Assembly (NCBI RefSeq): GCF_032854445.1
Contig: NC_088305.1
Coordinates: 27,366,628-27,430,627 of the forward strand
Source of the DNA: Liolophura sinensis
Taxonomy: Eukaryota; Mollusca; Polyplacophora; Chitonida; Chitonidae
DNA length: 64,000 nucleotides
Reading direction: 5' to 3'
How positions within the stretch are numbered: position 1 is the first letter of the stretch; each line of letters opens with the position of its first letter. Below, piece by piece: positions 4,749 through 62,750 of this stretch. The position numbers and the translations under genes were made by a program. The notes beneath the pieces were generated by a model that made no database searches, had not been told where the DNA came from, and saw nothing but the letters and a program-made list of their open reading frames with translations.

Positions 4749-7206
4749 ACGTGTAAATACTTGCAAAATTAAATCTACAGCCTACTTTGTCATGTCCAGC
4801 ATGGTAGTGTCAACTAAGCCTTAGGCATTTATTTAATATAATTTTGAACAAAAGGAACATGGGATTCGGGACAAAGTTGGATCTGTTGTTTAGTGTGAAA
4901 TACAAAATATTATTCCAACATCTCAGATTCATTATAATGGCTGATCATAAGTACTATATACTTACCATTACTTTGACTTGAATAACTCCAGGTAGATCAA
5001 AGCCTGATGGATTTGTGCCATGTAATGTTTTACCTTTTTCTGTAAAATATATACTTTCTGTGTTTGCTATGTATCAGGTTTTACTGAATATCCCAAGTTG
5101 TGATACTGAATTGTTTTTTGTAGTGTTTATATGTTTAATATCTAGTCACAAGAGATTTACTTGACCAGAAGACATTGGTTGGTAACTATTTCACCTTCGA
5201 CATGTTGTTGTTGTAATGCCATTCCATGATAAAGCACTCCTGAAATGGCCAACACCCGAGTGAAATTTGATTTGTTGCATGCTAATTGGCAGACTGAAAC
5301 ATTTTAAATTTTGTCACAGAGGTTTAAGAATTACTGCTTTTATTGAGGTTATTTGTAGATCTTTTTTTCTGATGCCATAATTATACCAATGGTCTTCAAT
5401 TCCTATTTTTGCTAAAAGTTATTGTAACCATAAAGCTTACATATTATTTTAGAAAATAGTATCCATATATTGGTCTATACATGTAAAATATGTAATTCAT
5501 TTTTAATTGTATGTTATTTTAAAAGAATACTCTTTGCGAGACTTACAAATGTATTTCCTCTACTTAGGGAAGGTTGTTAGAACCTCCTTAAGCCTAATGT
5601 AATGTCCTCTCTTTTTGTGCTTTACACGCATTTACAATATTACATATCAAAATATAGTCAAGCTTATCATAGTATGAATTCACACTGAATTATCAAACAG
5701 TGTGTATATAATAATCAATAAGCTTTAACTTTTTACCCTGGACATTTTGCATTTTCATTTGTTTGTTTTTTGTACATGTATATTAAAATACATGTATATT
5801 AAAAAGCTCTTTTAACTTCATCATTGAAATGTGTAGGCTGCAATGACAAAATCATGTCTCCAAAAAATAGTTTGGTTTTCTTTTCCAATTGTGTAGGAAC
5901 ATACATATTCTTTAAGCCTCAGAATGGGTTAATTGAATATCTGACACTCCAGTGTCTCATGCAGTTGTTTATTATGTGGTGTGTGCTTGTAGATGCAAGT
6001 AGATAATATACAGATAGTGCATGCTGTGGAGAGGGACATCAGGAATTGTCAGTTTGAGAGAAATGGTAATCAACGAGGGCCGAGATGAAAGCCATAACCA
6101 CCATCCAGTTGTTTACTTTACAAACAAGCAGACACCAGAGCTCTCGAAGGGAGATAAGTGCTGTGGAATAAACACATGTGATTGTTGGATATTCTTGTGA
6201 ATGTTGGATAATACTTTGTGGGCGTAACGTTACATTTCTTGGCGCGCATGATCATTGTATATCATGTCTTGGGGAATATCATGTGACCGTCTCTCGACCA
6301 GTGGAAACCAAGAATTACCGTATGAGATAATAATTACTGTTAGGTTATTGTTGGTTTTGTACAATATAAAGCAATATCACACAAGCAATAATAATTCTTT
6401 GTCTTCATTGTTTATGGCTCATACCACATGCATGTGCATTATGATTAATACTTTGCTTTACATACGATAAATAAATTTAAAAAAACTCAGAAATTGTATT
6501 TGTTTTTCTTTTATTTAAATGTACCAAATACACATACAGATGGCATTTGCCTGGTTACATTCATAGTTCTCAGAGTTACCATTGTTACGTATGCCGATAT
6601 ACATGTATACCTAGACCGATACAAGGTTTGAATTTATTGTTTTGAAGGAAATCAAATCATGTTGAATATGAGTGTACATACATGACAAAAGGGATTAAGA
6701 TATTTCCTGAAATACACTGTGTTCATGACTGAAGATGTGGTTGTATTTGTCATCTCCTTTTAACTCTGTCCATTTTTATCAAGATGGTCTCAAATATAAG
6801 TGGCTTATGCTTCAGTGAATTTCTGTGGAAGACACCATGCAGACAGGAAACTTCACCAGTCAGCAATAATGACATTAAGTGTATACCTTAATGATAAGCA
6901 CTATAGCTCTAATGCTGGAAACTGGGAGACAATGGGAAGCAATGTCCCATGACCAACAAACAGCATAGCACCATCTGGATGTTGTGTAAGGGAAGATAAC
7001 TCTGTGATATCACTCATTGATATTGCACATTGAATTATATACCTATGGATTATCCTCCGTTAGACGACATCCTGATGTTGCTATAACTACGGTTATTGGC
7101 TGCAAATGAATATTGTTTTGGCACAGGTATGGAAACAATTTATCTTGCATTAAGTCAGGAGTCTCCTGAGACAACAGGCAAAGTACTGAATGGCTCACCC
7201 TGTATA
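4749..7206. other. AT-rich intergenic stretch, no gene seen
   Basis: No convincing exon, RNA gene or recognisable element. Short open frames here lack domains, codon pattern or flanking splice signals. A tandem pair of TACATGTATATTAAAA words lies near 5773-5804. Confidence 0.6.
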
Positions 7207-7466
7207 TTTTATTTATTTATTTATTTGATTGGTGTTTTACGCCCCTACTCAAGAATATTTCACTTATATGATGGCGGCCATCATTATGGTGGGAGGAAAC
7301 TAGGGGAAACCCACGATCATCAGCAGGTTGCTGGCAGACCTTCCCCCGTACGGCCGGGGAGGAAGCCAGCATAAACTGAACTTGAACTCACAGTGACTGC
7401 AATGGTGAGAGGCTTCTGGGTCATTACGCTGCGCTAGCACGCTATCCAACTGAGCCAGGAGGCCCC
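7207..7466 (-). mobile_element. tRNA-derived SINE (family A), near full length
   Basis: Reverse-strand copy. On the + strand it starts with (TTTA)n, continues as GATTGGTGTTTTACGCC... and ends in the reverse complement of the tRNA-like head (AACTGAGCCAGGAGGCCCC). The B-box region reads TGAACTCACAGTGACTGC on the + strand. Confidence 0.88.
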
Positions 7467-16500: not shown

Positions 16501-19500
16501 ATCAATAGAGCTCCCATAATCAAGCCAAATCGGAGCCTTGTCATAGGTGAAATTTTAATTGGGTAGTTTCAAGTTTGAGCTCTTTAATGGCTAAATTTAG
16601 GTACAAAAAGCCCTACTGTATCATGTTTCTTGTCAAAAATGTTAGGCAACTGTTATTATTGATCACATTTACTAAAATATAGGCGTTCAGAAAAACTTTC
16701 ACAAAAGGTAATTTAGAGTACACAAACACATGGAGAAAATTGAGAAACTGAATGTTTTTGAAGTTCCTAACAGAAAAGAGGTGTCATTTGTTCCTCTGGA
16801 ACATGGCAAGATAATCGATAGGTAAACTAATGTCAACAAAGCTTGGCTGAGATTTTTCCTACGTCACAAAGAGTCTGAACTTGAAACTCCGCTATTCATT
16901 CACAATAAATAAATAAATAAATTAACAAATAACGGATACAGTGTCTGCGTCTTACTCTAGAAATCACATCTCGTATCTGCTTGTACTTCTCTGTGATGTC
17001 ACCAGCCTCTGTTAATGGAGCGTCATAGTCGTAGCTCGTGATGTGGGACTGTATCGGAGAGTAATTGGCACCTAGAGAGAGGAGAGAGTCAAGGACTGTA
17101 TCGGACAGTAATTGGCACCTAGAGAGAGGAGAGAGTCAAGGACTGTATCGGAGAGTAATTGGCACCTAGAGAGAGGAGAGAGTCAAGGACTGTATCGGAG
17201 TGTAATTGGCACCTAGAGAGAGGAGAGAGTCAAGGACTGTATCGGAGAGTAATTGGCACCTAGAGAGAGGAGAGAGTCAAGGACTGTATCGGAGAGTAAT
17301 TGGCACCTAGAGAGAGGAGAGAGTCAAGGACTGTATCGGAAAGTAATTGGCACCTAGAGAGAGGAGAGAGTCAAGGACTGTATCGGACAGTAATTGGCAC
17401 CTAGAGAGAGGAGAGAGTCAAGGACTGTATCGGAGAGTAATTGGCACCTAGAGAGAGGAGCGAGTCAAGGACTGTATCGGAGAGTAAATGGCACCTAGAG
17501 AGAGGAGCGAGTCAAGGACTGTATCGGAGAGTAATTGGCACCTAGAGAGAGGAGAGAGTCAAGGACTGTATCGGAGAGTAATTGGCACCTAGAGAGAGGA
17601 GAGAGTCAAGGACTGTATCGGAGAGTAATTGGCACCTAGAGAGAGGAGAGAGTCAAGGACTGTAACGGAGAGTAATTGGCACCTAGAGAGAGGAGAGAGT
17701 CAAGGACTGTATCGGAGAGTAATTGGCACCTAGAGAGAGGAGAGAGTCAAGATTTGCACAGTTACCTACTGCACATAACCCTGCATGGGGATGTAGGTTC
17801 AATACCAACATGGGTCACGATAAAGAATTCAAAACTTAGTGTGCATACAATGAAAGAAATGTCCAATTATTAGATTACCAAAATGCTGCGTTTAAGCTTC
17901 CAACAAATTCTCTACATACATCGAGCATGTACCAATAAAATGCTCGAGAGTCCAGATGCACGTCAATGTTAACAGACGTAAGGTCATGTATGTCTAATTC
18001 GTGAACCTTTTCAACCTCCTCTGCAACCAATGTTTTGAAACATTCTCAGAGAACAATGGAGTAAGGGGAAATAATTTTCAATAGCCTCATGAAGCATCTT
18101 CAGTCACACAAACAAATAATTTTTAGTGTCATTTTCATTATAACTGTATGCAAAAATTCCACTGCTAAAAAAAGAGCTTTAGTGTTTGAAAAGGTTGAAG
18201 ATTTACAGTACATACAATTCCAGAAACACCTACCATTTGTGTAGCCAAAATTAGTGCCACCATGGTACATATATCTGAAAGACAAAAATTGACTATACTG
18301 AAAATTCAATTTCGATTTTTGGTCACATTTTTTTTGAATTTATAATTCAACATTTTGAAGTTGTAAAGTTGTAGAAGATAAAAACAATCAGACCTTCTCT
18401 CCAGCTCATCTAAAGCATTGTTCTCAGTATCTGCCAATCAAACGTTTATGTCACCACCTACATGTTGACATCAGCTTCAGCCTTCAACACCACTTACATG
18501 TTGACATCAGCTTCAGCCTTCAACACCACCTACATGTTGACATTAGCCTCACCCATGACAACCACTTACATGTTGACACCAGCCTCACCTTTGTCACCAC
18601 CTACATGCTGACATCAGCTTCAGCCTTCAACACCACCTACATGTTGACATTAGCCTCACCCATGACAACCACTTACATGTTGACACCAGCCTCACCTTTG
18701 TCACCACCTACATGCTGACATCAGCTTCAGCCTTCAACACCACCTACATGTTGACATTGGCCTCAGCCTTGACAACCACTTACATGTTGACACCAGCCTC
18801 ACCTTCGTCACCACCTACATGATGACATCAGCTTCAGCCTTCAACACCACCTACATGTTGACATTGGCCTCAGCCTTGACAACCACTTACATGTTGACAC
18901 CAGCCTCACCTTCGTCACCACCTACATGATGACATCAGCTTCAGCCTTCAACACCACTTACATGTTGACATTGGCCTCCGCTTGTAACATCAGATCCAAA
19001 GAATAGGCAAACGCGGAGCCGTTGACTCGGGCAAACTCTTGACCCCAGTGGTCAAGCCAGCCTGCATAAAACTCTGAGCACACCTGAAAAAAGGTTATTA
19101 AATGGTTCAGACATTAGTTTCAAAATCTGTGTTTCTGGCAGGGGCCAGAAGGTGATAAATAAGATGAAGTTAAATGACCTGAAATGCTGATTTTTTACAA
19201 ATTCCTAAAGTTTAAGGTATTACAGGGGACTGAAACTATCAGAATTGTAATCGTAATGGTTCGACATATTCTGATTACTTTTCCAGAAAGAATTTCTGAC
19301 TTTATTTTCATTTCTTTTTTAATGGTAAAATCTTATTCAAGGTCTAAGGTTTAAATGTGTTTTCTTTTCACCTCAACGACTGAAGTGTTTGCTAACGAAT
19401 AGCTTATATCAGCTATGACATCACTGCAAAAATATCAATTATATTTTTTAAAAACTTTCACAAAAACCTTTTGAAGGTCAAGTGCTAGTATTGTATTTAA

Positions 19501-22500
19501 GAAATAAAGGGTTGTATTTTTTGCAGTAAAATGCCTGAGATATATGTATGCCGAAAATATATACATGTACAGGAATGGCCACTTTTCTGGCTATATCTCA
19601 GGCATTTTAATACGACTAAAAGCAAACATTTGTTTCTATTTTAACACACCCAAATTTCACCAAATTTTAATCATTCGTTGTATCTTGAATCCGTTCGTTT
19701 ACAAAACCACCAACTCTGTACCTTTTTATACTTACCAAAGGCCCTTTTGGTTCAAACTTCCTTTGACTGATTTTAAAAACACCAGCAGGGTTTACTGTCC
19801 AACAAGAGAAAGAAAAAGACTGTATAAAAGAACACTTTTGATCAAATGCATATATGAATGGATAAATCATAACATATAAACCTTACAAATCATACTAGCA
19901 CCTTTTTACATTTGTGATGTTACGTAAACAAGATATTGCATTTCAAATTTAGCTTGAGATTTTAAAAAAATTAAGCACTGCCATATCTGTATTATCAGTT
20001 TTAATCAATCATGTACTAATCAATTACCATTTCATATAACAGGAACGAAACTGTTTCCCCTGATGTCATGCAAAACCTGTTTGGCCCGTAGTCACATGCG
20101 CATGGCTGTGGTATGCGCGATGCAGTATTGTGCTTCCAGTTACTCTAACATGGTGTATCATATGGCCTCATACTCAATTCATGATTATAAGTCGATTTAT
20201 GCAATTACCACGAAAAATTGTCGTCTCTGTTCAGGCCTCTTAATGTTTCCACCCTTTACTTTCAAATTTCGATGGAGAATTTCTGCTCAATTTAATTTTG
20301 AAAAAACAACAGTGCATTACACTGAAAACCCCTCGACCATAGGTCAAAATGTTTTCAAGGAAATGGATGGATGGGCTGTTCAACTGATGGAGTGTTTGCT
20401 GGGAAATGATAGATGAATGAACAGACATATTGTCTCAGTCTGATTGTTCGGGCGATTGGTCAAGGAACACTAAAATTGATTTTTTTTTTTTTTTTTTTTT
20501 GATTGGTGTTTTACGCCATACTCAAGAATATTTCACTTATACGACGGCGGCCAGCATTATGGTGGGTGGAAACCGGGCAGAGCCCGGGGGAAACCCACGA
20601 CCATCCGCAGGTTGCTGGCAGACCTTCTCACGTACGGCCGCCAGCATGAGCTGCACTAAAATTGAACAGGGCTCAGCTACATTCCTACATGTAGGTTATA
20701 TGTTATGTTTGTTAAGTTATATTTGGTTACAAATTTCAACAGACGTCATGGTAAGATTAATGCCTTTCATACAATTTAACTTTAATGGCACCAAAGACCT
20801 TGAAAAAATGAGGTCAAGGTCACTGAAACTCTATACGCTTTTTCCTCATGACACATTGCAGATGTGGTGTAAGTTTGGTGAACTTCGAATAACTGATCAG
20901 GAGACATCGGGTAAACAAGAAAAAATGGATGCCCGACTACCAATACCGGCCGAGGGGTGAAAAAAAAAATGTTAATTTCATCAAGTTCATTTGAAATGTG
21001 ATTTACACCCAAATCAATGTGAATTTTACTTCAATGGAAAAATGTCAGTTACGTAGGTTGAAATACTGAGGGCAAACACTCAGTATTGCTTCCATGTGGA
21101 AGTATATACCTGCCTACTTACATGAGATGCCGAAGTCCACTGTGGCGTAAAGCCCTTGCAGTGTTCCGCATTTTAAGTACGACACTCCAGCCCCATCTGT
21201 CGTGAATAAGACAATGTTGTCACCAAGGAGAGCCCGGAATTTCTTCTCTAGGTATCTCAAATAGTCATAGTCACAGGCGAAATAACTGCCATACTCATTT
21301 TCAACCTGGTGAAGAACAAGAAAACATAAAATAGTACAGCCTCATTTATGACATGATTAGGCAAATGCTAGAAGAGGTCAAGTTTTGGGTGGTGGTGCTT
21401 GGCAGGAGGCGAGATTGTCTTTTTTTTTAACTTAAGAAACAATATTTATTTATTTACTTATTTGACTGGAGCTTTAGGACATACCCCCCCGGGTACTCAA
21501 GAATATTTCACTTACGAGTCAACCGCAGTATTACGGTGAGAGAAAAACTGGCAGAAGGACAAGAATTAGGAGGAAGTTGATACAAAGTATATAGGCCTAT
21601 GTATGTATGCTTGAGGTTTACTGTCATACTTAACAATTTTTCAGTCATATGATGATGAGGAGTCATTAGGTGTGCGTACATAAACTGTTGTGTTCCTGTG
21701 GCAAGGTGAGTCCATGGTGTCAATGTGCTGCCGCCACTGAAGTATCATGCCTAAGACACCAGACATGACACCCCAAACCAGTCTCATTATACTTGACAGC
21801 GGGTTAACCAGTTCTATTTCCTTGCTCTAACGTCTGAGTGCTGAGCGAGACAGCAACATGCACCGTATTTGAATTCTTTCGTATGACCCGACCAGATTGA
21901 TACAAAGTAAACAGCATCACCATCAGGACATTAAAAGACTTCTGTAATTTTCTACCCTGTGTAACCACGGTTTGCTATAATTACCTGTACAGTGATGATG
22001 GGCCCTCCGTTACTGTACAGGTAAGGGCGGACAATGGGTAACAAGACATTCAGCCATCTGTCTACAGCCGCAATATAGTCTGCAGATAGAAAATATGAAG
22101 GAAAATATATGTCCACATTAAGCAAAGTAACTTTTTTTTACCATTACCGTTTCTTGATTTCATATTTTATAAAGAACAAGATAAACCTGACCCCCAACAG
22201 TGAAGAAGCTACATGTAAGAGCTGTAAATCACCCTCATCAATCTACCAGTCAACTAAGCAAAAGCAATTACATGAAAGTGTCAAATATAAGAATCATATC
22301 TAAGTGTCAAATTTCAGCATCATTAAAGTGTACGAACTAAGTTTCAAATCTAAACACTGCATCGAGTCAAATCTATTAAGCAGGATATCAAGGTGTCAAA
22401 TCTTAAGCATATTGTATCAAAGTGTCAATCTAAGCATATCATATTAAAACTTCAAATGTATGAGTCCAAGCTAGGCCTCTAATCAAAGTGTTCAATCTAA

Positions 22501-25500
22501 GCACAAAATCAAAGTGCCAAATCAAAGCAGCATGTCAAAGAGTGAAATGTAAATGTAAATGTAAGTATCATAACAAATCATGAAATCTAAGCATCATGTC
22601 AAAGTGCCAAATCTAAGTAACAATCAAAATGTCAAATTTAAACATCATATCAATGTGTTAAATTTAAGTATAATATTACAGTGTCAAATATAAGCATAAC
22701 ATTAAAGTGTCAAATCTAAGCAGTATGTTAAAGTGTCAAACCTAAGCAATATATCAAAATTTCAAATTAAAGCCTTAAATCAAAGTGCAAAACAACATAA
22801 AAACAACAAAAGCATACACATACATAGTAGTTAAGTTAATAAGAGTATGATGAGAGTCATGCAAAAGAGAAGCTATCACTTTCAATGTGACCCAACTGAA
22901 CTCACCTCGGTCCATTGTCCTTACAACCATATTAGGCGAATCCTTCAACAGCCAAGCAGGCAGGCCACCCTGAACAAGGAATTATACTCATTGGGTTTAT
23001 GCTGTAGGGTTTGTTCTGTATGGTTTATGCTGTATCCTGTGTCAAAGATCTACATGTAGTTTTTCAGCACTGAACAATGTCCTCCAATGTTCTCAGTTTA
23101 TGGACTGAATATACTAGTCTGTCTTTTTATAAATTAATTATCTCAGTATTCAAAATGGTAAATTACAAAATCCTCTTTGGCTAAAATCTTAGGTCATGTC
23201 CTGTTCTTGAAATACATGTAATCCACTTTGAAATTCTGTCTGGAAAAAAATGTAACTGACTTCAACGTTGCACAATTCAGTTCTCGATTTACAAAGTCTT
23301 AACTTTATTTATTTATTTATTTATTTATTTATCTGATAGGTGTTGTACACCATACACAAGAATATTCCGCTTATACGATAGCTCCCAGCATTACAATGAG
23401 AGGACACCAAGCAAAGCTTGGGGGAAACCCCTATAAACTGCTTAAAATATCCTAGCTTTACAATATCAATGATTTATATCATAATCTTACAACATCAACA
23501 CTAAACATCAGCATTCTCTGCACAGTGGGTTCCACACCTGTCATTGTTGGTATGATCACTACAGGCTATTTAATTTTCAGATTGACCACTGGGGCTTCCA
23601 GAAAAGTGTACTTTAATTTTTAGTCCCTGAAAAGGAAGGCTGAAAATGTTTTTTTTTTCGTACTGTTATATATTATTACCTGTCCTAAACTGCGTATTAG
23701 GAAATAAACACACACCGTTTCATGTATAACTGAACAACGTACAAGGCCGAGCATTACAAAAATAACAGTTAAGTGTTAAGCCAGGATTATAAATATGTTC
23801 TCTACGAGTAACTTAACTGACCCTCCAAGATAAAACACTAGTTTACAATGCAGTATTTTATTTGGTTTCAGATAGAACCTTTCTTTCCGTCCTCTCAATA
23901 TTAATTTCTATAAAATCTTAATCTAAAAACCACTGATGACTTTGCCTATTTTAAATGATAGAGTTGTATTACAGCCAACAAAGAGTCTATTTAAGGATAG
24001 CATTATATTATAGCTTTACCTTTAATAATAATAAGAAGTTTTTAAGCTTAAAAGGATAACAGCAAAACAACGTCCAAGCTTATTAAAGCATAATGACTCC
24101 TAATTTTTAACTCCTAATTTTACAAAAATAACAACTTACAATGCCCTAGGTTTTAATACCACAGCAACTTACAAAATCCCACTCAGCACAAATGTATGGT
24201 CCTGGCCTGAGAATGACAACCAGGCCTACATCTTGAGCAATTTGGAGAAACTGCTCAAGATTTCTTTTTCCAGTAAAGTCATAATTCCCTGGAGTCAGCT
24301 CATGGAAATTCCAGGGCACATACCTGAAATTGAAAGTACAAAAGCCCATCGAAAAACTGATGTGGATTTTATTGTGAGAACTAATTTTGAAAACATAATC
24401 TCCTTGGTGGGGCCTCGGTGGCTCAGTTGGTTAGAGCGCTAACGCAGCATAATGACCCAGGAGTCACTCACCAATGCAGTCACTGTGAGTTCAAGTCCAG
24501 CTCATGCTGGCTTCCTCTCCGGCCATACGTGGGAAGGTCTCCCAGCAAACCTGCAGATGGTCGTGGGTTTCCCCCGGGCCCTGCTCAGTTTCCTCCCACC
24601 ATAATGCTGGCTGCTGTCGTACAAGTGAAATATTCTTGTGCAAAACACCAACAAAATAAATAAAAAAATAATCTCATTGGTCAAGGGCTTGTGTCAACAG
24701 CAAGTCCACCACTTTCTGCATGTTTCGCCAGTCAATTCAAGAGGATGCATGAAGCAAAAATTATACTGAACACTACCTAGTACTATTAAAAACACAAAAA
24801 AGGAAGGCTGACATGGAATAGTTTCCACAATATATCAAGATTTGCCTATTAATTACATGCATCTATTCTCAAATTTTTCGGTGCTATTTGGGGTTACAAC
24901 TTGGAGCTTAAAATAATGCTATAGCTCAGAGTATAGTTGCTTTTGATTTCAAGTTGATACATGTGTTTTGGCATAGTTTACCTACATGCAAATGATGGTG
25001 TTCAGTGTCGGGGGTAGAGCCCAGTATATTTTTTTAATTTATTTATTTGACTGATGTTTGATGCCATGATCAAAGAAGTTTTCACTTATACAATGGTGGT
25101 ACCTGGGATATTTATTTATTTACTTATTTGATTGCTGTTTTAATGCCATGATCGAGAATTTTTGACTTAAATATGATGGTGCTCAGGTTCGCCATTCATG
25201 GGTGAATCACCCGCATTTTCAACGTACATGACAAACCTCCCAACTTTAAGCTGAAGTTCAGACAGCAAGAGCAGGATTTGAACACCTGATCTCGTTGGTA
25301 AAGGGTCAGGTACAGCAAACCCTGAATAAATCATTCATGTAAAAAATGCCAGGTCACTTAGATGCTTTAGTACCACAGCCCTGAGAACAGAGGAGACCTA
25401 GGAAGCTCAAAAATGACCTGTCTGAGATTGGGGTTGAACCAAACCTGGTGTCTCCGTCAGGCAATTCAACCACCACTTCAATGCTGACCATTTCTATGGC

Positions 25501-26755
25501 TTAATTGTTAGAGTGTTAACCTCCAAGGCATGAGACCTGGGATAAAACCTTGGTTGGGTCATACCAAAAGCTTTAAAGAGTGGTACTTGTTGATGCCTTG
25601 CTTGACGCACAGCACCACGAGTTTAGAGCAAGGAAACAGGAATTTTTGGCCCAGTGTCAGTATAATGTGACCGGGTGGGGTGTCATGTCTGGTGTCTTTG
25701 GTATGATACTTCAGCACAAGCAGCATTTTGCCAGCTTGGACTCACCCTGCCATAAGAGGACACAGTGTATGTACACATACCTACTGACTCTTTGTCATCA
25801 TATGAACAAAAAATATTTCAGTACGAAGTAAAACTCCACGCATATACACAAAAAACTGCAAAAATTCACAAGCAAAATAAATGTGCTAGCAATACTTACA
25901 CTTGTACCGCATTGAGTCCACCCGCATACATCTTCTCCAGTCTGTCTCTCCAGTAGATCGGCGGTACACGGCTGTAGTGGATACTGCCAGAAATGTAGCG
26001 GAAAGGTTTGCCATCCTTGAGGAAGGTATCGTTATCATAATCTATTACAAAGGATCTCTCCCCTTCGACCTATAATATAAATTGCAATTTGTTCAAATCA
26101 ATGGTCACCTTACTTTAAAACAAAAAAGTGTTATTATAAAATTCTATTTTATATTTAATACTATTTTTAAACCTATGTATTATCGCCACCAATGAAATCC
26201 CTCTGAGTTCAAGTCCAGCTAACGCTGACTTCCTCTCTCTCTTACTGTATGTGGGAAGGTCTATCAACATCCCGCGGATGGTCATGAGTTTCCTGCAGGC
26301 TCTGCCCAGTCACATCCCACCAGCTATAGATTCCAATCATTTCTAACACTGCCAGCTTAAATACAATTTTGACAGGTGAGTTTTGTCATGTTTTGAAGTC
26401 CTGTTCTACACATCATAAAACTTTCTGGTGTTGTGAAATTGTGACTGACAGCGCACGGTGTCCAAGATCATATTGTGACTCGCAATAAACAAAATTTTGT
26501 TTTTACAACACAACTTGTAAACGCAAACGGGCCGTGTTGTAGTTGTTGCAAAGTGCCGCTGCTCTTGGATAGGCTGGATATGCAGTCATTATTTGTTCCT
26601 TCACACTAAAAAACTACATCCACATTATCAGGAGCAGTGGCAAAATCACAGTAAGATGCTTCAAACTAATGCAAAATGCAAACCTTAAGTGCTGACACTG
26701 CCAAGATAACTAAAATCAGAAAGCCAACTGTTCCCGAAAAGCTTTCAATCGCCAT
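10519..26755 (-). CDS. GLB1: Acid beta-galactosidase (GH35), 17 exons, complete
   Basis: Lysosomal exo-glycosidase that removes terminal beta-galactose from gangliosides, glycoproteins and keratan sulfate. Exons 5'->3': 26755-26684, 26069-25900, 24323-24173, 22969-22906, 22079-21985, 21305-21122, 19794-19736, 19083-18962, 18274-18234, 17071-16956, 15843-15769, 15275-15180, 14430-14326, 13504-13370, 12692-12586, 11908-11770, 10794-10519. All junctions are GT-AG with matching phase; the sum is 2007 nt (668 aa; human GLB1 is 677). Seen: signal peptide core [13 protein letters not shown] (residues 11-23); [19 protein letters not shown]; acid/base Glu188 in ENEYG (exon 6); nucleophile Glu269 in SEFYAGW (exon 8); [33 protein letters not shown]; and the C-terminal beta-domain [15 protein letters not shown]. 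The start context is AAAATGG. Exons 8 and 10 abut minisatellites built from their own splice junctions. Exon 7 is small and more diverged; its phase and the following EPKGPL support it. Confidence 0.94.
11389..11665. repeat. 31-bp minisatellite, about 9 copies
   Basis: In the last GLB1 intron. The unit contains GCTGTATGGGCATTGCTTGC followed by TGATTGCTTAA. Copies differ by single bases and the last ones drift (TTTCA for TTTAA). It is about 105 bp from the exon 16 donor and does not include it. Confidence 0.9.
12087..12273 (-). mobile_element. SINE family A, 3'-truncated and diverged
   Basis: In a GLB1 intron. The + strand shows the distal body TGGCCAGGTGGGAGGAAATC, then the CAGATTGCTGGTAGACCTTC block, and ends in the complement of the head (CCTCGGCCACGGATGCTCGC). 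The A/T-rich tail region is degenerate. Confidence 0.75.
12808..12995 (-). mobile_element. SINE family A, internally deleted
   Basis: GLB1 intron. The tail and GACTGATGTTTTACGCC are present. The middle body is deleted so that the tail-proximal part joins CCAGGGGGAAACGCATGG. The B-box region remains (+ strand ATGAACTCACAGTGATCAC). Confidence 0.75.
13045..13252 (+). repeat. Unnamed dispersed repeat, copy 1
   Basis: About 200 bp in a GLB1 intron with a same-orientation relative at 23551-23731. Shared blocks: CAGATTGACCGCTGGG (copy 2 CAGATTGACCACTGGG), GAAAACTGTACTTTAA, TACTGTTATACATTATTACC, GAAATAAACAC and TTTCATGTAT. This copy has a C-rich insertion near 13127-13145. Not a SINE A or B. Confidence 0.7.
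13590..13826 (-). mobile_element. tRNA-derived SINE (family A)
   Basis: Near full length in a GLB1 intron. + strand: TTTATTTATTTGATTGGTGT, TTACGCCGTACTC, AGCATTATGGTGGGAGGAAA, then TTTGAACTCACAGCGACCAC and a decayed head. Confidence 0.85.
15935..16072 (+). mobile_element. SINE family A, 5'-truncated
   Basis: 3' half only (CAACCTGCAGATGGTCG... GCCGTAAAACACCAATCAAA plus TAAA tail), in a GLB1 intron and antisense to the gene. No tRNA-like head. Confidence 0.8.
17049..17756 (-). repeat. 47-bp minisatellite carrying the GLB1 exon 10 acceptor, ~15 copies
   Basis: Tandem array that begins inside GLB1 exon 10 (acceptor at 17072-17073) and runs up-intron. Each unit on the minus strand contains a pyrimidine tract, a TCTCTCTAG acceptor, then the first exon bases GTGCCAATTACTCTCCGATA. 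Copies are nearly identical. Roughly 15 equivalent 3' splice sites thus precede one exon. Only the last gives the correct protein: reading through one unit in the exon frame ends at the TAG of the next acceptor. Confidence 0.92.
18452..18979 (-). repeat. 36-bp minisatellite carrying the GLB1 exon 8 donor
   Basis: Units of 36 bp in a 108-bp higher-order pattern. On the minus strand each includes a version of the exon 8 end (GAGGCCAATGTCAACAT) followed by GTAAGTGGT or GTAGGTGGT. The first unit is the real exon edge (exon 8 is 18962-19083) and the array extends into the intron. Missing the real donor gives ATG TAA, an immediate stop. Confidence 0.9.
19528..19607. repeat. Perfect 16-bp inverted repeat
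   Basis: AAATGCCTGAGATATA at about 19528-19543 and its exact complement at about 19592-19607, 48 bp apart, in GLB1 intron 7. Could be a small hairpin or the ends of a tiny MITE. Confidence 0.6.
20468..20665 (-). mobile_element. Young 5'-truncated SINE (family A) with 12-bp target duplication
   Basis: Flanked by the direct repeat CACTAAAATTGA (20468-20479 and 20654-20665). Between them lie a pure T19-type tract (poly-A on the minus strand) and a little-diverged family A 3' body that stops before the tRNA head. A textbook target-primed insertion. Confidence 0.92.
21446..21556 (-). mobile_element. SINE family A fragment
   Basis: Tail and distal body only, with an inserted C-rich block (ATACCCCCCCGGG) inside the TTACGCC/TACTC junction. 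GLB1 intron. Confidence 0.65.
22275..22785. repeat. Degenerate ~23-bp repeat
   Basis: About 20 poorly conserved copies of a unit like AAGTGTCAAATCTAAGCAT in a GLB1 intron. Period and sequence have drifted, suggesting an old array. Confidence 0.7.
23303..23431 (-). mobile_element. SINE family A fragment
   Basis: (TTTA)7-type tail on the + strand, then GATAGGTGTTGTACACC... GCTTGGGGGAAACCCC; head missing. GLB1 intron. Confidence 0.75.
23551..23731 (+). repeat. Unnamed dispersed repeat, copy 2
   Basis: Partner of 13045-13252, same orientation, 10 kb away within GLB1. Lacks the C-rich insertion of copy 1. Confidence 0.7.
24395..24681 (+). mobile_element. Full-length SINE (family A) with target duplication
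   Basis: Element at 24409-24667 between near-identical direct repeats ATAATCTCCTTGGT (24395-24408) and ATAATCTCATTGGT (24668-24681). It contains GGGGCCTCGGTGGCTCAGTT (A-box region), GTGAGTTCAAGTCCAGCTC (B-box region), the body, and a tail of AAATAAATAAAAAA. A good reference copy for the family. GLB1 intron 2, antisense. Confidence 0.93.
25035..25325 (-). mobile_element. Two nested/adjacent SINE-like fragments with a different head
   Basis: Two tails in a row (TTTATTTGACTGATGTTTGA at about 25042 and TTTATTTACTTATTTGATTG at about 25114). The second body is unlike family A and ends with GCAGGATTTGAACACCTGAT, the complement of a tRNA B-box-like stretch. Probably a third, related SINE type. Confidence 0.6.
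25494..25765 (+). mobile_element. tRNA-headed SINE (family B), copy 1
   Basis: Head TGGCTTAATTGTTAGAGTGT, then GATAAAACCTTGGTTGGGTC, followed by a body shared with 44183-44500 and 55756-56065: GGTACTTGTTGATGCC, GAGCAAGGAAACAGG, CCAGTGTCAGTATAATGTGA and GGGGTGTCATGTCTGGTGTC. No A-rich tail. GLB1 intron 2. Confidence 0.8.
26190..26322 (+). mobile_element. SINE family A fragment
   Basis: From the B-box region (CTGAGTTCAAGTCCAGC) to GTCACATCCCACC; both ends missing. GLB1 intron 1. Confidence 0.7.
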
Positions 26756-26785
26756 TTTGTACCGCCTTCAGTCACACGAGCACAA

Positions 26786-26795
26786 GTCACATGAC
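26786..26795. promoter_or_regulatory. CLEAR-like E-box upstream of GLB1
   Basis: GTCACATGAC, 31 bp before the GLB1 ATG on the minus strand. It differs at one base from the palindromic CLEAR consensus GTCACGTGAC bound by TFEB/MITF factors at lysosomal genes in vertebrates. Position and gene class fit, but a single 10-mer is weak evidence. Confidence 0.4.
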
Positions 26796-27309
26796 ATATT
26801 CTTACAGGAGGTACCCTGCGGTGTATTTCAACGGTCGTAAAAACAGCCATAAATTATTGGTTCTCGCGTGCTTGGTGTCTCTACACCTGCGCATAAACGA
26901 AGCAAATTATTGCTCAGCTGTGTATTTATATTTCTAATTTACATTAGTTATATGAAAGCTTTGGTCACTTTTTAGATGTAGAAACTACCTTCAACGTCGG
27001 AGAATGCTGAAGTTACGATAAGTAATAGGAAAATACAGTAATATCGTTTTTGTTCAAATTGTGAAAAAATTGATCTGATTATCAGACTGAGAATTCTTTT
27101 TGAAATGTTTCATGCCCCGGTATTTTTAGCTCATATTCTTAACAGTATTTATCTTTTCAAAGGACTGTTTTGAAACATGTCCAGTTTTATCTAGTCAGGC
27201 CATGGAGGTAAATATGGACCTGTTTGGTCAGACTGTGTGTATTCTAAAATCATGTGCAATGTTTTGTTATGAACTTTTGTTACATTTGTCAGTTTGATTT
27301 TTAAACAAT

Positions 27310-27382
27310 TTTGGCCGTATCTCGCTATGGTATGACTGAAATATTGCCGATGTGGCGTTAAACCAAAACCGTTCATTCATTC
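27310..27382 (+). repeat. Fragment resembling a mollusc repeat 3' tail
   Basis: TGACTGAAATATTGCCGATG then TGGCGTTAAACC and CATTCATTC. This resembles the 'ATTGCTG..GGCGTTAAA..CACTCA' 3' ends common in molluscan SINE-like repeats. Recognition is from memory of style, so low confidence. Confidence 0.4.
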
Positions 27383-28294
27383 TATAACTGTATTAATCCC
27401 TGTATAGAGTATGTGCCCCGTAGTTATCGCGTTAATCGTGTGAAAAACCACAGCTGTATAATTTTACATGCGTATGCATACTCACCTGTGTTTGACGTAA
27501 ATAAATTATATAGGAGAAAATGATAATCGTCATATGTACGCCAGGGCCCTCGATCGTTGTATGACTCGTGCAGTAAAAGCCTTACTCTCACAACACCAAC
27601 AGGGATCAACCACTAGCCACAGTCTTATATCACCACATTGGGACTGTCCACAACAATGGTACATATCCGTCCTGCTAAACTGGGTATTATTTGGTATTAT
27701 TATATTATATTATATTTGGGGTTTAGCGCGCCTTGGGTGACAGGATTTCGATGATATTTACTGTTTGGTATCTGTTGGTTTGTATTATATGTCAGTTATT
27801 ATTTTATCATCTCCTCTTTCTAGTAGGATGTCAAAAAAGGCAATTCATGGTTCACTAGTTGCCATGGTAGACTGTGTAGCGTCATCAAGATCATTTAACA
27901 CTTGGTGAAAGGATTTTAAATCTCCATGCAAGTTTACTGTTCCAAAGGATGAATCAGTCACGTGAATACCGTTTTAATGACTGTTTCACAGAATCTGAAG
28001 TTGGAACACTGAAATATTGCTGACAATTTTTATATAATTTGGTTTCTAAATAGCCCAACGCCAATTTAGCATATAGGTAAGGGCAAACTTGCTTCTCATA
28101 GCATGCAGTTCCTAGTGTAGATATAAAAAAAAATTCTAGCACCGGAAAGAGTAAAGTCAGAAGAGAAGCGTTCACTGTCACTGGGATCGGGTAGAGTGAT
28201 AACCAGTATGTTAAAGCAGAAGAAGAAAAACTTTCTCTAACGTAAGAAAGTGCATAATTAATAAATAGCTGGGACAGCAATAATAGGCCTAAAT

Positions 28295-28588
28295 GTAAGA
28301 CTAAGGTCCAAATGTAAGACTAAGGTTTAAATGTAAGACTAAGGTCTCAATGTAAGAAATGTAAGACTAAGTTCTAAATGTAAGACTAAGGTTTAAATCT
28401 AAGACTAAGGTCTAAATGTAAGACTAAGGTCTAAATGTAAGAAATGTAAGACTAAGGTCTAAATGTAAGACTAAGGTTTAAATGTAAGACTAAGGTCCAA
28501 ATGTAAGACTAAGGTGTAAATTTAAGACAAAGGTCTAAATGTAAGACTAAGGTCTAAATGTAAGACTAAGTTCTAAATGTAAGACTTG
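28295..28588. repeat. 19-bp minisatellite, about 15 copies
   Basis: Unit AAATGTAAGACTAAGGTCT with occasional partial units (GTAAGAAATGTAAGAC), in the GLB1-KIF5 intergenic region. Confidence 0.92.
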
Positions 28589-28639
28589 ATGCATGGATTA
28601 GGAGCAGAAATACTTCTCCGGCTTCTGTAATTTCCGGTC

Positions 28640-29750
28640 ATTTGTTTACCTTATATAGGCAGTCCATAAATTTGACTACTTTTATATTCAAATTTTGTTT
28701 GAAAGTCTTTCTCAGATCTGCTAAGATTTTTGCCATGTGTTTCAACAAGTTGTTCTATCGGTCTTCAAGTCTTTTTGTCATGGTTTCCCAAAATTTGTTT
28801 GTATGTAATTTCATCTTGAAAGATATCTGAAATTTTGCTTTTGAAAGAGCGTTTGTCGGCTACCTTTATAATTACGTACGTTCTGTCCCGCATATGTTTA
28901 TGAGCTCACCATTCTTTCTTGTTAAGATTGCTTCTTACCTGCTTGCTTTTGTTGGTACCTTTAGGAATATGATTAATTAAGTGTATAAATGTGTCTAATT
29001 GATTGTTTCGGCCTCTTGGGGGACTGAAAGTACCCTTCCTATCACTTATGAAATGTAATCATTTTCAACATTACAAAACTATTCCTGTCGGCGAAGCTTC
29101 CTTTGGCGAAATATCACTCTTCAACTCAGTGGGATTTCCATTAGGAGTATCAGTAAATTTGAGGCCTTTGCTGATTAATTTTACTTCATTTTCAGAAAGA
29201 GTCACTGAAGATGAGTTTATTATCTTTGGGTCTGTCGATGATGGTATCTCTCCTATTGTTTCCACTGGATGCCTGTGTATGGGTTGGTTTCTCTTCTCCT
29301 CTCGCCGTCGTGTGAAAAATGGGTTCTGGGTGAGTAATTTGGATGACGACTGGGTTGTTGCGGGTTTCTCTGTTTGCTTCGGGTCATATTCCCGCCTTTG
29401 AGACTGACGGAACATCCCTATAATCTTTCTGTTTTTTGGGGGTTTTTTCGTGTTTTTTTTTATTGGGCTGAGTTTTTACCACATCAGCGCAGGCTTCATC
29501 CACTGTTCACCTTGAGACGTTGGAAGGCGTGTGGTAGGAGGAATCTTGTCGGACCCAGGCTCGGTGGTTTGGAGTGTCGCTCTGGGATTGGGTATAGTGG
29601 TGATAAATGTATATATATCTTCAATGGAAGGAATGTTTTCAAGCCATACCTTTTTCTTTTGCAATACGATTTTTGACTTTTCTTCGTCCTCAAATATTTC
29701 CATCAGCCAATTTTCAGTGAATTTTGGCGTTTGGCATTTTTTGTATTAAG
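28640..29750 (-). pseudogene. Decayed Penelope-like retroelement fragment
   Basis: Minus-strand reading shows, in order, motifs typical of the N-terminal/early RT part of Penelope-like element proteins: SENEVKLISKGLKFTDTP (about 29130-29185), FSPPRGRNNQLDTFI (about 28985-29035), NLNKKEW (about 28908), VIIKVADK (about 28857-28880; family form IKPADKG) and IYGLPI (about 28655-28672; family form LPKIHK). From FSPPRG onward one frame holds but contains at least three stops (after NKKEW, DKKT and GLPI); upstream parts lie in other frames. The catalytic RT YxDD region and the GIY-YIG endonuclease are absent. It is a dead 5' fragment. The family call rests on remembered motifs. Confidence 0.7.
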
Positions 29751-29923
29751 GTTTCAAAGGCAGTTTGAGATTAGAACATGGCGATCTCACGTTTCGCCGC
29801 TTGTTCGCGGAGACAATAAATTCCAAACTTGACCTTCTCCTTGTGTAGCTCTGTTTAGCGTCGTATTTGTTCCAAACTCCGTCCAGTTCATTCGGTTTCC
29901 TGTATATATGTATAATTGAACGT

Positions 29924-30126
29924 GGATTGCACGATGTAAATGAATGTAGCCAAATGTTATTTATATATGTTCTACGCAAGTATACACACTTGCGTATATA
30001 TTGCGTATTTGCGTATTTATTCACGATAAGTGTATATACTTACGTATTTATTCACGATAAGTGTATATACTTGCGTAGAACATATATAAATAACATTTGG
30101 CTACATTCATTTACACCATGCAATCC
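29924..30126. repeat. Large hairpin: 64-bp inverted repeats, 73-bp loop
   Basis: The arm 29924-29987 (starts GGATTGCA, contains TGTAGCCAAATGTTATTTAT) is matched almost perfectly by the complement of 30061-30126. The loop contains two copies of CGTATTTATTCACGATAAGT. The arms carry no gene. It lies just upstream (minus sense) of the Penelope-like fragment. Confidence 0.9.
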
Positions 30127-30490
30127 ACACAGATACAGACAGACATCACGTGTGCAAGCATGGGCAGTCAGGCATTTAAATGCAGCACATGCTGCTCTAG
30201 TTGACATCCACAAATAGATTTGATCGGATTAAGCGCATTTAACACTCACTGCGTGCGTGAACACAAGCAGAGGTTTCTATACTTGATAAGACCTTTCCAG
30301 TGGGTTACCACGTCCACCCCATCCCATCCTCCACCACCTCTCAACCAACCCCTACCCCACCGTGCACCCATCTCCCTCAACCCCATACACCAACCATCTT
30401 CAGTTTAAACACCATTCAATCTTTATGCACAGGCTCTGGCCGGTGCACGCATGAAGACACCGCCTTGTTTGCTTTTCTTCTTCTTTTTTT

Positions 30491-30493
<3 letters not shown>

Positions 30494-30521
<28 letters not shown>
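30494..30521. repeat. (AT)n microsatellite
   Basis: About 14 TA units, about 780 bp upstream of the kinesin ATG. Confidence 0.95.
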
Positions 30522-30528
<7 letters not shown>

Positions 30529-30974
30529 ATTATTATTTAAACAATTAATGTTTATATACTTATCTATGCCCCAATGTAGCCTTATAATGTAATTTCAGAT
30601 ATGGGTCGAGGACGACGAATTATTATGTCATGATCTGGTAATATGGTGATATTAACAGACTAGGCCTACGTGTGAATGCATATCATGATATTTGCAAAAC
30701 ATATGCAGGTAAATATTGATTTTACCCAGTCAATTAATAATGCAGGTACAGTCTGCGTAATTATATACGCAGACCCGTCTGTGAATATTCAACATTTTAT
30801 TCAATATAAATGCCAAAATGGTTTGATTACTAATTGCTTGTTTTTATTTTTCCTTGTTGTTTTCTTTCTTCAAAATTATCTTTTAACATTTCATATATAA
30901 AAACATTCAACTGAGAGAAGTGAATATCTGCTTTTCTGTTCGAATAGCGAAAACCCCCATCTCGAGCCTCAAGG

Positions 30975-30982
30975 TGACGTCA
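30975..30982. promoter_or_regulatory. Full CRE palindrome upstream of kinesin
   Basis: TGACGTCA, 320 bp before the KIF5 start codon, in sequence consistent with a promoter or 5' UTR. CREB/ATF sites are commonly positioned like this, but function here is untested. Confidence 0.4.
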
Positions 30983-31302
30983 TTTTCTCCACCATTCACA
31001 GCACAAAATGGAAGTAGACAGATAATGTCAATGGATGTCGTGTCGGAATTTTACGTGTAATTGATATTTTGACGGGGTTTTCGTCTCTGATCGCCGATGA
31101 AATCGATCTGTTAAACTTCGGTTTTGGGCTCAGGTGACTAAATCGACGAAAATCCTGCCCGAAACCAGTTATTTTCCAGGCAAAACGTCACCACGGCTGT
31201 TGCCGGTCGGCCATGTTGTAACCAACAGGCAAGCTGCTCGGGTTTATTTTTGACAGAAGCTGTCCAAACATTTGAGGAAATCGACTGATATCTAGTTTTA
31301 AA

Positions 31303-61426
<30,124 letters not shown>

Positions 61427-62750
61427 GTCAGGACTTCTGTATAGCACTTCTATAGTACTGTGTGATAGAAAACAGTCGTAGCAGCCTTGTACTCTGCCAG
61501 TCACACACCTTACAGTACAGTGTGATAGACTAGAGTTGTACTCTACCAGCCACACATCTTACGTCACAGGGTTATAGAATACAGTCGTAGCAGCCATGTA
61601 CTCTGCCAAACACACACCTTACAGTACAGTGTGGTTGATAACAGTCATAACATCGTTACAGTGTACCAGTCAGGCACAGACCTTACAGTAATTTGTGATT
61701 GATTACAATCATAACATCCTTACAGCGTACCAGTCAGGCACAGACCTTTCAGTAATTTGTGATTGATTACAATCATAACATCCTTACAGTGTACCAGTCA
61801 GGCACAGACATTACAGTAATTTGTGGTTGATTACAATTATAACATCCTTACAGCGTAGCAGTCAGGCACAGACATTACAGTAATTTGTGATTGATTACAA
61901 TCATAACATCCTTGCAGCGTACCAGTCAGGCACAGACATTACAGTAACTTGTGATTAATCACAATCATAACATCTTTACAGCGTAGCAGTCAGGCACAGA
62001 CATTACAGTAATTTGTGATTGATTACAATCATAACATCCTTACAGTGTACCAGTCAGGCACAGACCTTACAGTAATTTGTGATTGATTACAATCATAGCA
62101 TCTTTACAGCGTAGCAGTCAGGCACAGACATTACAGTAATTTGTGATTGATTACAATCATAACATCCTTGCAGCGTACCATTCAGGCACAGACATTACAG
62201 TAATTTGTGATTGATTACAATCATAACATCCTTACAGTGTACCAGTCAGGCACAGACATTACAGTAATTTGTGATTGATTACAATTATAACATCCTTACA
62301 GTGTACCAGTCAGGCACAGACATTACAGTAATTTGTGATTGATTACAATCATAACATCCTTGCAGCGTAGCAGTCAGGCACAGACATTACAGTAATTTGT
62401 GATTGATTACAATCATAACATCCTTGCAGCGTAGCAGTCAGGCACAGACATTACAGTAATTTGTGATTGATTACAATCATAACATCCTTACAGCGTAGCA
62501 TTCAGGCACAGACATTACAGTAATTTGTGATTGATTACAATCATAACATCCTTGCAGCGTACCAGTCAGGCACAGACCTTACAGTAATTTGTGATTGATT
62601 ACAATCATAGCATCTTTACAGCGTAGCAGTCAGGCAAAGATATTACAGCAATTTGTGATTGATTACAATCATGACATCCTTACAGCGTAGCAGTCAGGCA
62701 CAGACCTTACAGTAATTTGATTCCCAGTGCAGTACAGTGTGATTGATTAC
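61427..62750 (+). repeat. 64-bp minisatellite after the KIF5 stop, ~17 regular copies
   Basis: Regular units from about 61650 to 62720 (TTACAGTAATTTGTGATTGA, TTACAATCATAACATCCTTA, CAGCGTACCAGTCAGGCACA), preceded by several irregular ones. The irregular ones start right after the last exon and share CCAGTCACA with its end, so this may be a sixth junction-derived array. If exon 23 ends at its TAA, the array lies in the 3' UTR. Confidence 0.9.

What the first reader, a model, noticed from the sequence alone, without database searches (positions are those of the whole stretch)
17049..61426. General pattern: minisatellites nucleate at exon-intron junctions in two unrelated genes
Five arrays of different unit length and sequence (47, 36, 73, ~90 degenerate, ~34 bp) all begin at an exon edge and copy exon end plus splice site; a sixth after the KIF5 stop is possible. 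Other arrays in the same introns (31, 21, 53, 68 bp) do not. Chance placement at both an AG and several GTs is unlikely. This suggests a process acting at splice junctions, such as template switching during repair at R-loops, or repair using partly spliced or nascent RNA as template. It would be a route for intron growth.
Basis: inference. Interest (0 to 1): 0.85.

Follow-up and report, generated by a model that had tools for sequence, protein, structure and literature searches.

The report
Splice junctions copied into intron minisatellites
In this chiton, some tandem repeats inside introns are made of copies of the neighbouring exon's end together with its splice site; the effect is real and widespread, but only up to about three times as frequent as random duplication would predict, so it looks mainly like tolerated duplication rather than a process aimed at splice sites.

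Summary
Confirmed: five arrays in the window (47, 36, 73/67, 34 bp and one degenerate) have units holding an exon end plus its splice site, in a beta-galactosidase and a KIF5 gene; the 'sixth' does not. Scaffold lengths identify the chiton Liolophura japonica. In genes chosen by protein family, not by repeats, 12 of 393 junctions (kinesin, myosin, kinase exons) carry such arrays: seven donors, five acceptors. So the pattern is widespread. But tandem arrays fill about 17% of non-exon sequence in the kinesin loci, and uniform placement already predicts about 6.7 hits. Further tests disagree: an echo-alignment test gives 1.7 to 2.75 fold (P 0.09 to 0.0004); array-end density and pooled motif tests are not significant. 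The junction's place in the unit is compatible with uniform, both boundaries are hit, units are contiguous genomic DNA. I favour ordinary tandem duplication; boundary-spanning copies survive because splicing keeps to the exon-proximal site. Decoy sites are not purged (215 of 235 copies keep GT or AG). Such arrays are known in amphioxus as 'mirages'; my searches listed none in a mollusc. A splice-directed process is not required, though a two- to three-fold bias near exon edges is not excluded.

The parts
17046..17751 (-). 47-bp array, 15 copies, of a beta-galactosidase acceptor: TTGACTCTCTCCTCTCTCTAG|GTGCCAATTACTCTCCGATACAGTC; the exon-proximal copy at the low-coordinate end is the real acceptor
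   Evidence: 14 of 14 further copies keep AG; protein join
18452..18978 (-). 36-bp array (107-bp higher-order unit), 14.8 copies, of a beta-galactosidase exon end plus donor (AACAT|GTAAGTGG)
   Evidence: 14 of 14 further copies keep GT; protein join
46460..48532 (+). 73/67-bp array of a KIF5 exon end plus donor (GGACAGAG|GTAAGATAGTGTG); donor GT at 46514
   Evidence: 24 of 27 copies keep GT; protein join
48090..48238 (+). second, longer copy of the same exon end at the far side of the array: matches 46410-46558, first 129 bases identical, about 104 of them coding
51535..51880 (+). degenerate array (three further copies, about 76, 122 and 81 bp apart) of a KIF5 exon end plus donor (CATTGTGGGAG...CAAG|GTAA)
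57254..57757 (+). 34-bp array, 14.7 copies, of a KIF5 exon end plus donor (GGTCCACAAACAG|GTAAACACACTTGG); donor GT at 57278
   Evidence: 12 of 13 copies keep GT; protein join
61487..62719 (+). 49- and 64-bp arrays after the KIF5 stop; no echo of the exon end found, so not part of the pattern

Best explanation
These are 'mirage'-type minisatellites. A short stretch of DNA is duplicated in tandem at a nearly arbitrary place (slippage, end-joining or template switching during repair), and some duplications grow into arrays by further slippage or unequal exchange. Duplications inside exons are removed by selection. Those inside introns, and those that span an exon-intron boundary, survive, because the transcript is still spliced at the exon-proximal copy and the other copies leave with the intron. 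In a genome whose introns are rich in minisatellites, about 3% of the sampled junctions lie inside the first unit of an array. Shown here: the anatomy, the sampled frequency, placement not far from uniform, intact decoy sites. Inferred: the duplication chemistry, the selective filter, and that splicing ignores the copies.
For: 12 of 393 sampled junctions against 6.7 expected from uniform seeding. Density of array ends not significantly different across the junction in kinesin loci (P 0.21). Seven donors and five acceptors in the samples; three donors and one acceptor among the four TRF arrays of the window. Exon share of the unit ranges 0.08 to 0.93, not distinguishable from uniform (KS P 0.29, n=12; at least 6 bp of exon was required, so very small shares are excluded). 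Units are contiguous exon-intron DNA as read by eye. A second exon copy with a new breakpoint lies in the KIF5 array. Splice dinucleotides in copies are about as conserved as other columns, 193 of 219 (88%) against 84%, ten arrays. Pooled motif tests: no significant excess.
Against: Echo test, null from kinesin introns: pooled 18 against 7.0 (P 0.0004), 16 against 5.8 (P 0.0004), 12 against 5.5 (P 0.012), 9 against 5.3 (P 0.09) at thresholds 15, 18, 20, 25; sample 2 alone 2.2 to 3.6 fold (P 0.0003 to 0.08), kinesin alone 1.3 to 2.1 fold (P 0.05 to 0.36). Pooled edge profile is higher from -50 to +100 bp than deeper, although sample 2 is truncated there; the kinesin-only version gives P 0.06. 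CAGGTAAGT alone 5 of 48 against 2 of 90 (P 0.05). Window excess. No RNA data: use of the exon-proximal site rests on reading frames and protein alignments.
Confidence: 0.63

Rival explanations
1. A mutational process acts at or near splice junctions (R-loops, spliceosome-coupled pausing, transcription-replication conflict) and raises tandem duplication there by template switching on DNA.
For: Echo enrichment 1.7 to 2.75 fold pooled, up to 3.6 fold in sample 2; higher density of array ends from -50 to +100 bp in pooled data; window excess; CAGGTAAGT against its control 5 of 48 and 2 of 90.
Against: Exact-junction density in kinesin loci not significantly above intron (P 0.21); first-unit test P 0.09 and 0.16; pooled motif tests P 0.18 and 0.83; the second motif pair shows nothing, 1 of 90 and 1 of 93; donors and acceptors both affected; phase compatible with uniform.
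Confidence: 0.27
2. Repair templated by spliced or nascent RNA copies exon ends into introns.
For: Units contain exon sequence.
Against: Units run on into the adjacent intron in the arrays I read, so spliced RNA is not the template; no systematic search for next-exon sequence was made. Nascent RNA is not excluded but not required.
Confidence: 0.03
3. The arrays are functional: copies of splice sites or exon enhancers help or tune splicing and are kept by selection.
For: Copies keep GT or AG (215 of 235; copies were picked by likeness to the real site, which raises this figure).
Against: Splice dinucleotides are hardly more conserved than other columns on the fairer comparison (88% against 84%); arrays sit at unrelated junctions.
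Confidence: 0.04
4. Assembly or haplotype artefact.
For: HiFi coverage only 14X (PMC11068029, passage).
Against: Mean HiFi read 8.3 kb against arrays up to about 3.3 kb in the samples (L030); many independent loci with diverged copies.
Confidence: 0.03

Closest known systems
'Mirage' minisatellites of amphioxus (Adh3, globins BflGb6 and BflGb9, PGBD5, troponin C)
   Same: Tandem units of about 10-160 bp spanning an exon-intron boundary, at either the 5' or the 3' boundary, with AG/GT signals in many copies; reported not to disturb regular splicing (PMC3087553 and PMC3902484, passages read)
   Different: Here in a mollusc, in four gene families (GH35, kinesin, myosin, protein kinase), with a sampled frequency and a test against uniform placement; no RNA evidence here
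Intron gain by tandem duplication of AG|GT (Rogers 1989; Zhuo 2007; Gao and Lynch 2009: seen only as citations in PMC3087553)
   Same: Tandem duplication that includes splice signals
   Different: In the window genes the arrays touch one exon edge only, so they lengthen an existing intron; no new intron shown
Ordinary intron minisatellites
   Same: Same range of unit lengths and copy numbers, same neighbourhood
   Different: The first unit includes an exon end

Membership tests
mirage minisatellite | tandem repeat unit contains an exon-intron boundary | tested here: met
   window arrays; 12 sampled junctions
mirage minisatellite | either 5' or 3' boundary | tested here: met
   7 donors, 5 acceptors in samples
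mirage minisatellite | regular splicing not disturbed | not testable with these tools
   no RNA data; joined exons align with solved proteins
mirage minisatellite | length instability between haplotypes or in somatic cells | not tested
   one haplotype only
mirage minisatellite | described so far in cephalochordates | tested here: not met
   scaffold lengths equal those of Liolophura japonica; no GFP match (whose control rang nowhere). This concerns the host, not the structure
splice-junction-directed process | clear enrichment of zero-distance arrays | tested here: inconclusive
   about 1.2 to 2.75 fold pooled, clearly significant in the echo test only; pooled first-unit test borderline, P 0.04

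The most novel reading that the evidence does not exclude
Exon edges, over roughly 50 bp of exon and 100 bp of intron, are two- to three-fold hot spots for tandem duplication in this chiton, through a transcription- or splicing-linked lesion, and mirages are the visible part of it; convergent with amphioxus.
Probability: 0.27. Interest if true: 0.75.

Novelty: new member of a known kind. Interest (0 to 1): 0.5.

Why it matters
If about 3% of splice junctions are embedded in arrays of mostly intact copies of themselves, this genome is a large natural experiment in splice-site choice: many near-identical donors or acceptors side by side, of which the exon-proximal one must be used. It would also mean that junction-spanning duplication is close to neutral, give a route for intron growth and raw material for intron gain, and extend mirages from amphioxus to molluscs, so that they may be common wherever introns are rich in minisatellites.

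Tried and rejected
Amphioxus as the organism was my first guess, from recall of the mirage papers; no GFP-family match (no positive control), a gene order nad3-nad2-cox1-cox2 that I recall as mollusc-type and exact scaffold lengths point to Liolophura japonica.

My first impression, that many arrays touch exons, was too generous: among the 18 exons I then read, several arrays only come near (three of L001, L009, L013, L014, L015, L033, the second array of L030).

The pseudo-junction null (3.2 to 3.9%, no excess) counted redundant long TRF periods, and the first echo null (12 seen, 12.2 expected at threshold 20) counted places near locus ends; both are biased against enrichment and were replaced. 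Match-level pattern counts (265 against 158) are dominated by a few large arrays and were replaced by locus counts.

Rule change: my first written rule asked for score at least 120 and 8 bp of exon. Under it three kinesin junctions pass (L003, L024, L032), close to the 2.7 expected at score 150; all six of sample 2 would pass. The looser rule (score at least 50, 6 bp) was fixed before sample 2 and applied to both. The twelve hits of the echo test at threshold 20 are not quite the same twelve: L031 drops out (it scores 18) and L101 comes in, which I did not read, nor the other extra hits at 18 (L057, L034, the donor of L064).

Rows dropped: 14 of 132 kinesin matches were not fetched (four of them in the window gene); 49 of 81 myosin and 39 of 138 kinase matches were used (long open frames left out; one myosin row dropped to fit 80 regions). 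403 junctions were located, 393 kept after a score and duplicate filter. Junctions were placed by a simple splice-site matrix of my own; four positions were corrected by hand (L015 stopped being a hit; L027, L030 and L031 stayed hits).

Tried and gave nothing: purging of decoy sites (none seen); an apparent excess of GT/AG retention that nearly vanished on a fairer comparison; the degenerate KIF5 array gave no countable copies, and L031 was not put in.

Full report
What is there. The window is scaffold C11:27366628-27430627 of a 609-Mb genome in 632 contigs. Contig lengths (96,433,062; 32,819,725; 28,395,274; 27,489,247; 25,057,479; N50 37,343,639 = C9) equal those of the chiton Liolophura japonica (PMC11068029, passages). 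It holds a short-chain dehydrogenase gene (+), a family-35 beta-galactosidase gene (-) and a KIF5 kinesin gene (+). TRF reports 49 rows of tandem repeats.

Observation. Four TRF arrays and one degenerate array have a first unit that lies across an exon-intron boundary, so that the repeat unit is exon end plus splice site. One is an acceptor (47 bp) and four are donors (36, 73/67, 34 bp and the degenerate one). Exons joined across the four TRF junctions align with beta-galactosidase (3wf3) and kinesin heavy chains (3kin, 8rhb), which supports the exon-proximal copy as the genuine site. The arrays after the KIF5 stop give no echo of the exon end. The KIF5 73-bp array also has, at its far end, a second and longer copy of the exon end, identical over its first 129 bases.

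Independent sample. I chose exons by protein family, without looking at repeats: 118 of 132 kinesin matches in 36 gene spans (177 kb), then 49 of 81 myosin and 39 of 138 kinase matches with 300 bp on each side (69 kb). Of 393 usable junctions, 12 carry a junction array: L003 acceptor, L024 donor, L027 acceptor, L030 donor (6 bp of exon), L031 donor (weak, 2.4 copies), L032 donor; L062 donor, L064 acceptor, L070 donor (115 of 124 bp exonic), L084 acceptor, L085 acceptor, L094 donor. I read all twelve sequences. So the pattern is widespread, about 3% of junctions in this sample.

Is it more than chance? Tandem arrays make up 17% of the non-exon sequence of the kinesin spans. If array ends fall uniformly, the first-unit rule predicts 3.06 hits in the kinesin set (6 seen, P 0.09) and 3.60 in the second (6 seen, P 0.16); pooled 12 against 6.66, P 0.04. 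Under my first, stricter rule the kinesin set has three hits, near expectation. An alignment-based echo test, with a null from kinesin introns, gives pooled 18 against 7.0 (P 0.0004) at threshold 15, 16 against 5.8 (P 0.0004) at 18, 12 against 5.5 (P 0.012) at 20 and 9 against 5.3 (P 0.09) at 25; kinesin loci alone reach 1.3 to 2.1 fold (P 0.05 to 0.36), sample 2 alone 2.2 to 3.6 fold (P 0.0003 to 0.08). Sample 2 flanks have a higher array density than the kinesin spans (null rate 0.021 against 0.014), so its ratio is inflated to some degree. The density of exon-facing array ends in kinesin loci, array interiors excluded, is 0.62 per kb in the last 50 bp of exon and 0.37 per kb in intron (P 0.21); from -50 to +100 bp it is 0.58 against 0.35 per kb deeper (P 0.06). 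Genome patterns: donor 9-mers CAGGTAAGT and AAGGTAAGT lie in arrays of three or more at 6 of 138 loci, their dinucleotide-matched controls at 3 of 183 (P 0.18; with a wider gap 7 of 131 and 5 of 180, P 0.37). The first pair alone gives 5 of 48 against 2 of 90 (P 0.05), the second 1 of 90 against 1 of 93. Patterns with three copies lie at 15 and 7 loci of the same 148 Mb (counted by hand), as expected from locus density (P 0.83). The single-motif lists cover only the first hundred places each, starting at one end of C1. The discovery window has 4 against about 0.65 but was selected for it. Together: a real pattern, with an excess of one to three fold that these data cannot settle.

Mechanism. 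Three features speak for arbitrary seeding. The junction lies at very different places in the unit (exon share 0.08 to 0.93, KS P 0.29). Donors and acceptors are both hit. Units are contiguous genomic DNA in the arrays I read. Copies of the splice site are not purged: 215 of 235 copies in 15 arrays keep GT or AG (copies picked by likeness), and within ten arrays the splice dinucleotide is about as conserved as other columns (88% against 84%). Some donor copies score about as well as the real one with a simple matrix of my own (for example 21 of 42 in L024). If such sites are harmless, the exon-proximal site must win; exon definition would explain it (recalled, not tested). Unit lengths are multiples of three in 5 of 16, so use of a copy would usually shift the frame. 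The duplication chemistry is inferred.

Comparison with the known. [quoted passage not shown] 2002, not held, known through citing papers) and described in globin genes BflGb6 and BflGb9 (PMC3087553, passages) and PGBD5 (PMC3902484, passage). There too both boundaries are hit, many copies keep AG/GT, and regular splicing is reported. The globin authors offered mirages as a route to intron gain. My searches for minisatellites at splice sites listed no title or abstract that reports this in a mollusc; passages of two mollusc papers among them did not either. The library holds only open-licence papers, and most listed papers were seen as listings only.

Verdict. Observation confirmed and extended; general pattern real in this genome; a junction-directed process not shown and not excluded. 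New member of a known kind, apparently in a new phylum, with a sampled estimate of frequency.

Noticed in passing
window 48530-48800, 52880-53150, 7090-7370: Repeated element, by eye, with a tRNA-like head (GTGGCTCAGTTGGTTAGC...) in several places; looks like a SINE family; name not checked.
   Followed up: no
G000:C99 and C632: Eight mitochondrial COX1 matches, seven of them in C99 at about 15.5-kb steps: C99 looks like a concatemer of the mitochondrial genome.
   Followed up: partly
L070 (C3:25740587-25741381): Myosin exon end of 115 bp copied in a 124-bp unit with nearly no change: a candidate source of alternative or gained exons.
   Followed up: partly
L003 1265-1841: Most of this kinesin intron consists of about 26-bp repeats related to its own acceptor.
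   Followed up: partly
window 58969-60565: 68-bp array of 23.5 copies inside a KIF5 intron with no exon sequence seen, the longest purely intronic TRF array of the window.
   Followed up: no
G000:C5:13465676-13476590: Five kinase matches about 2.6 kb apart in long open frames, looks like a recent tandem gene cluster.
   Followed up: no
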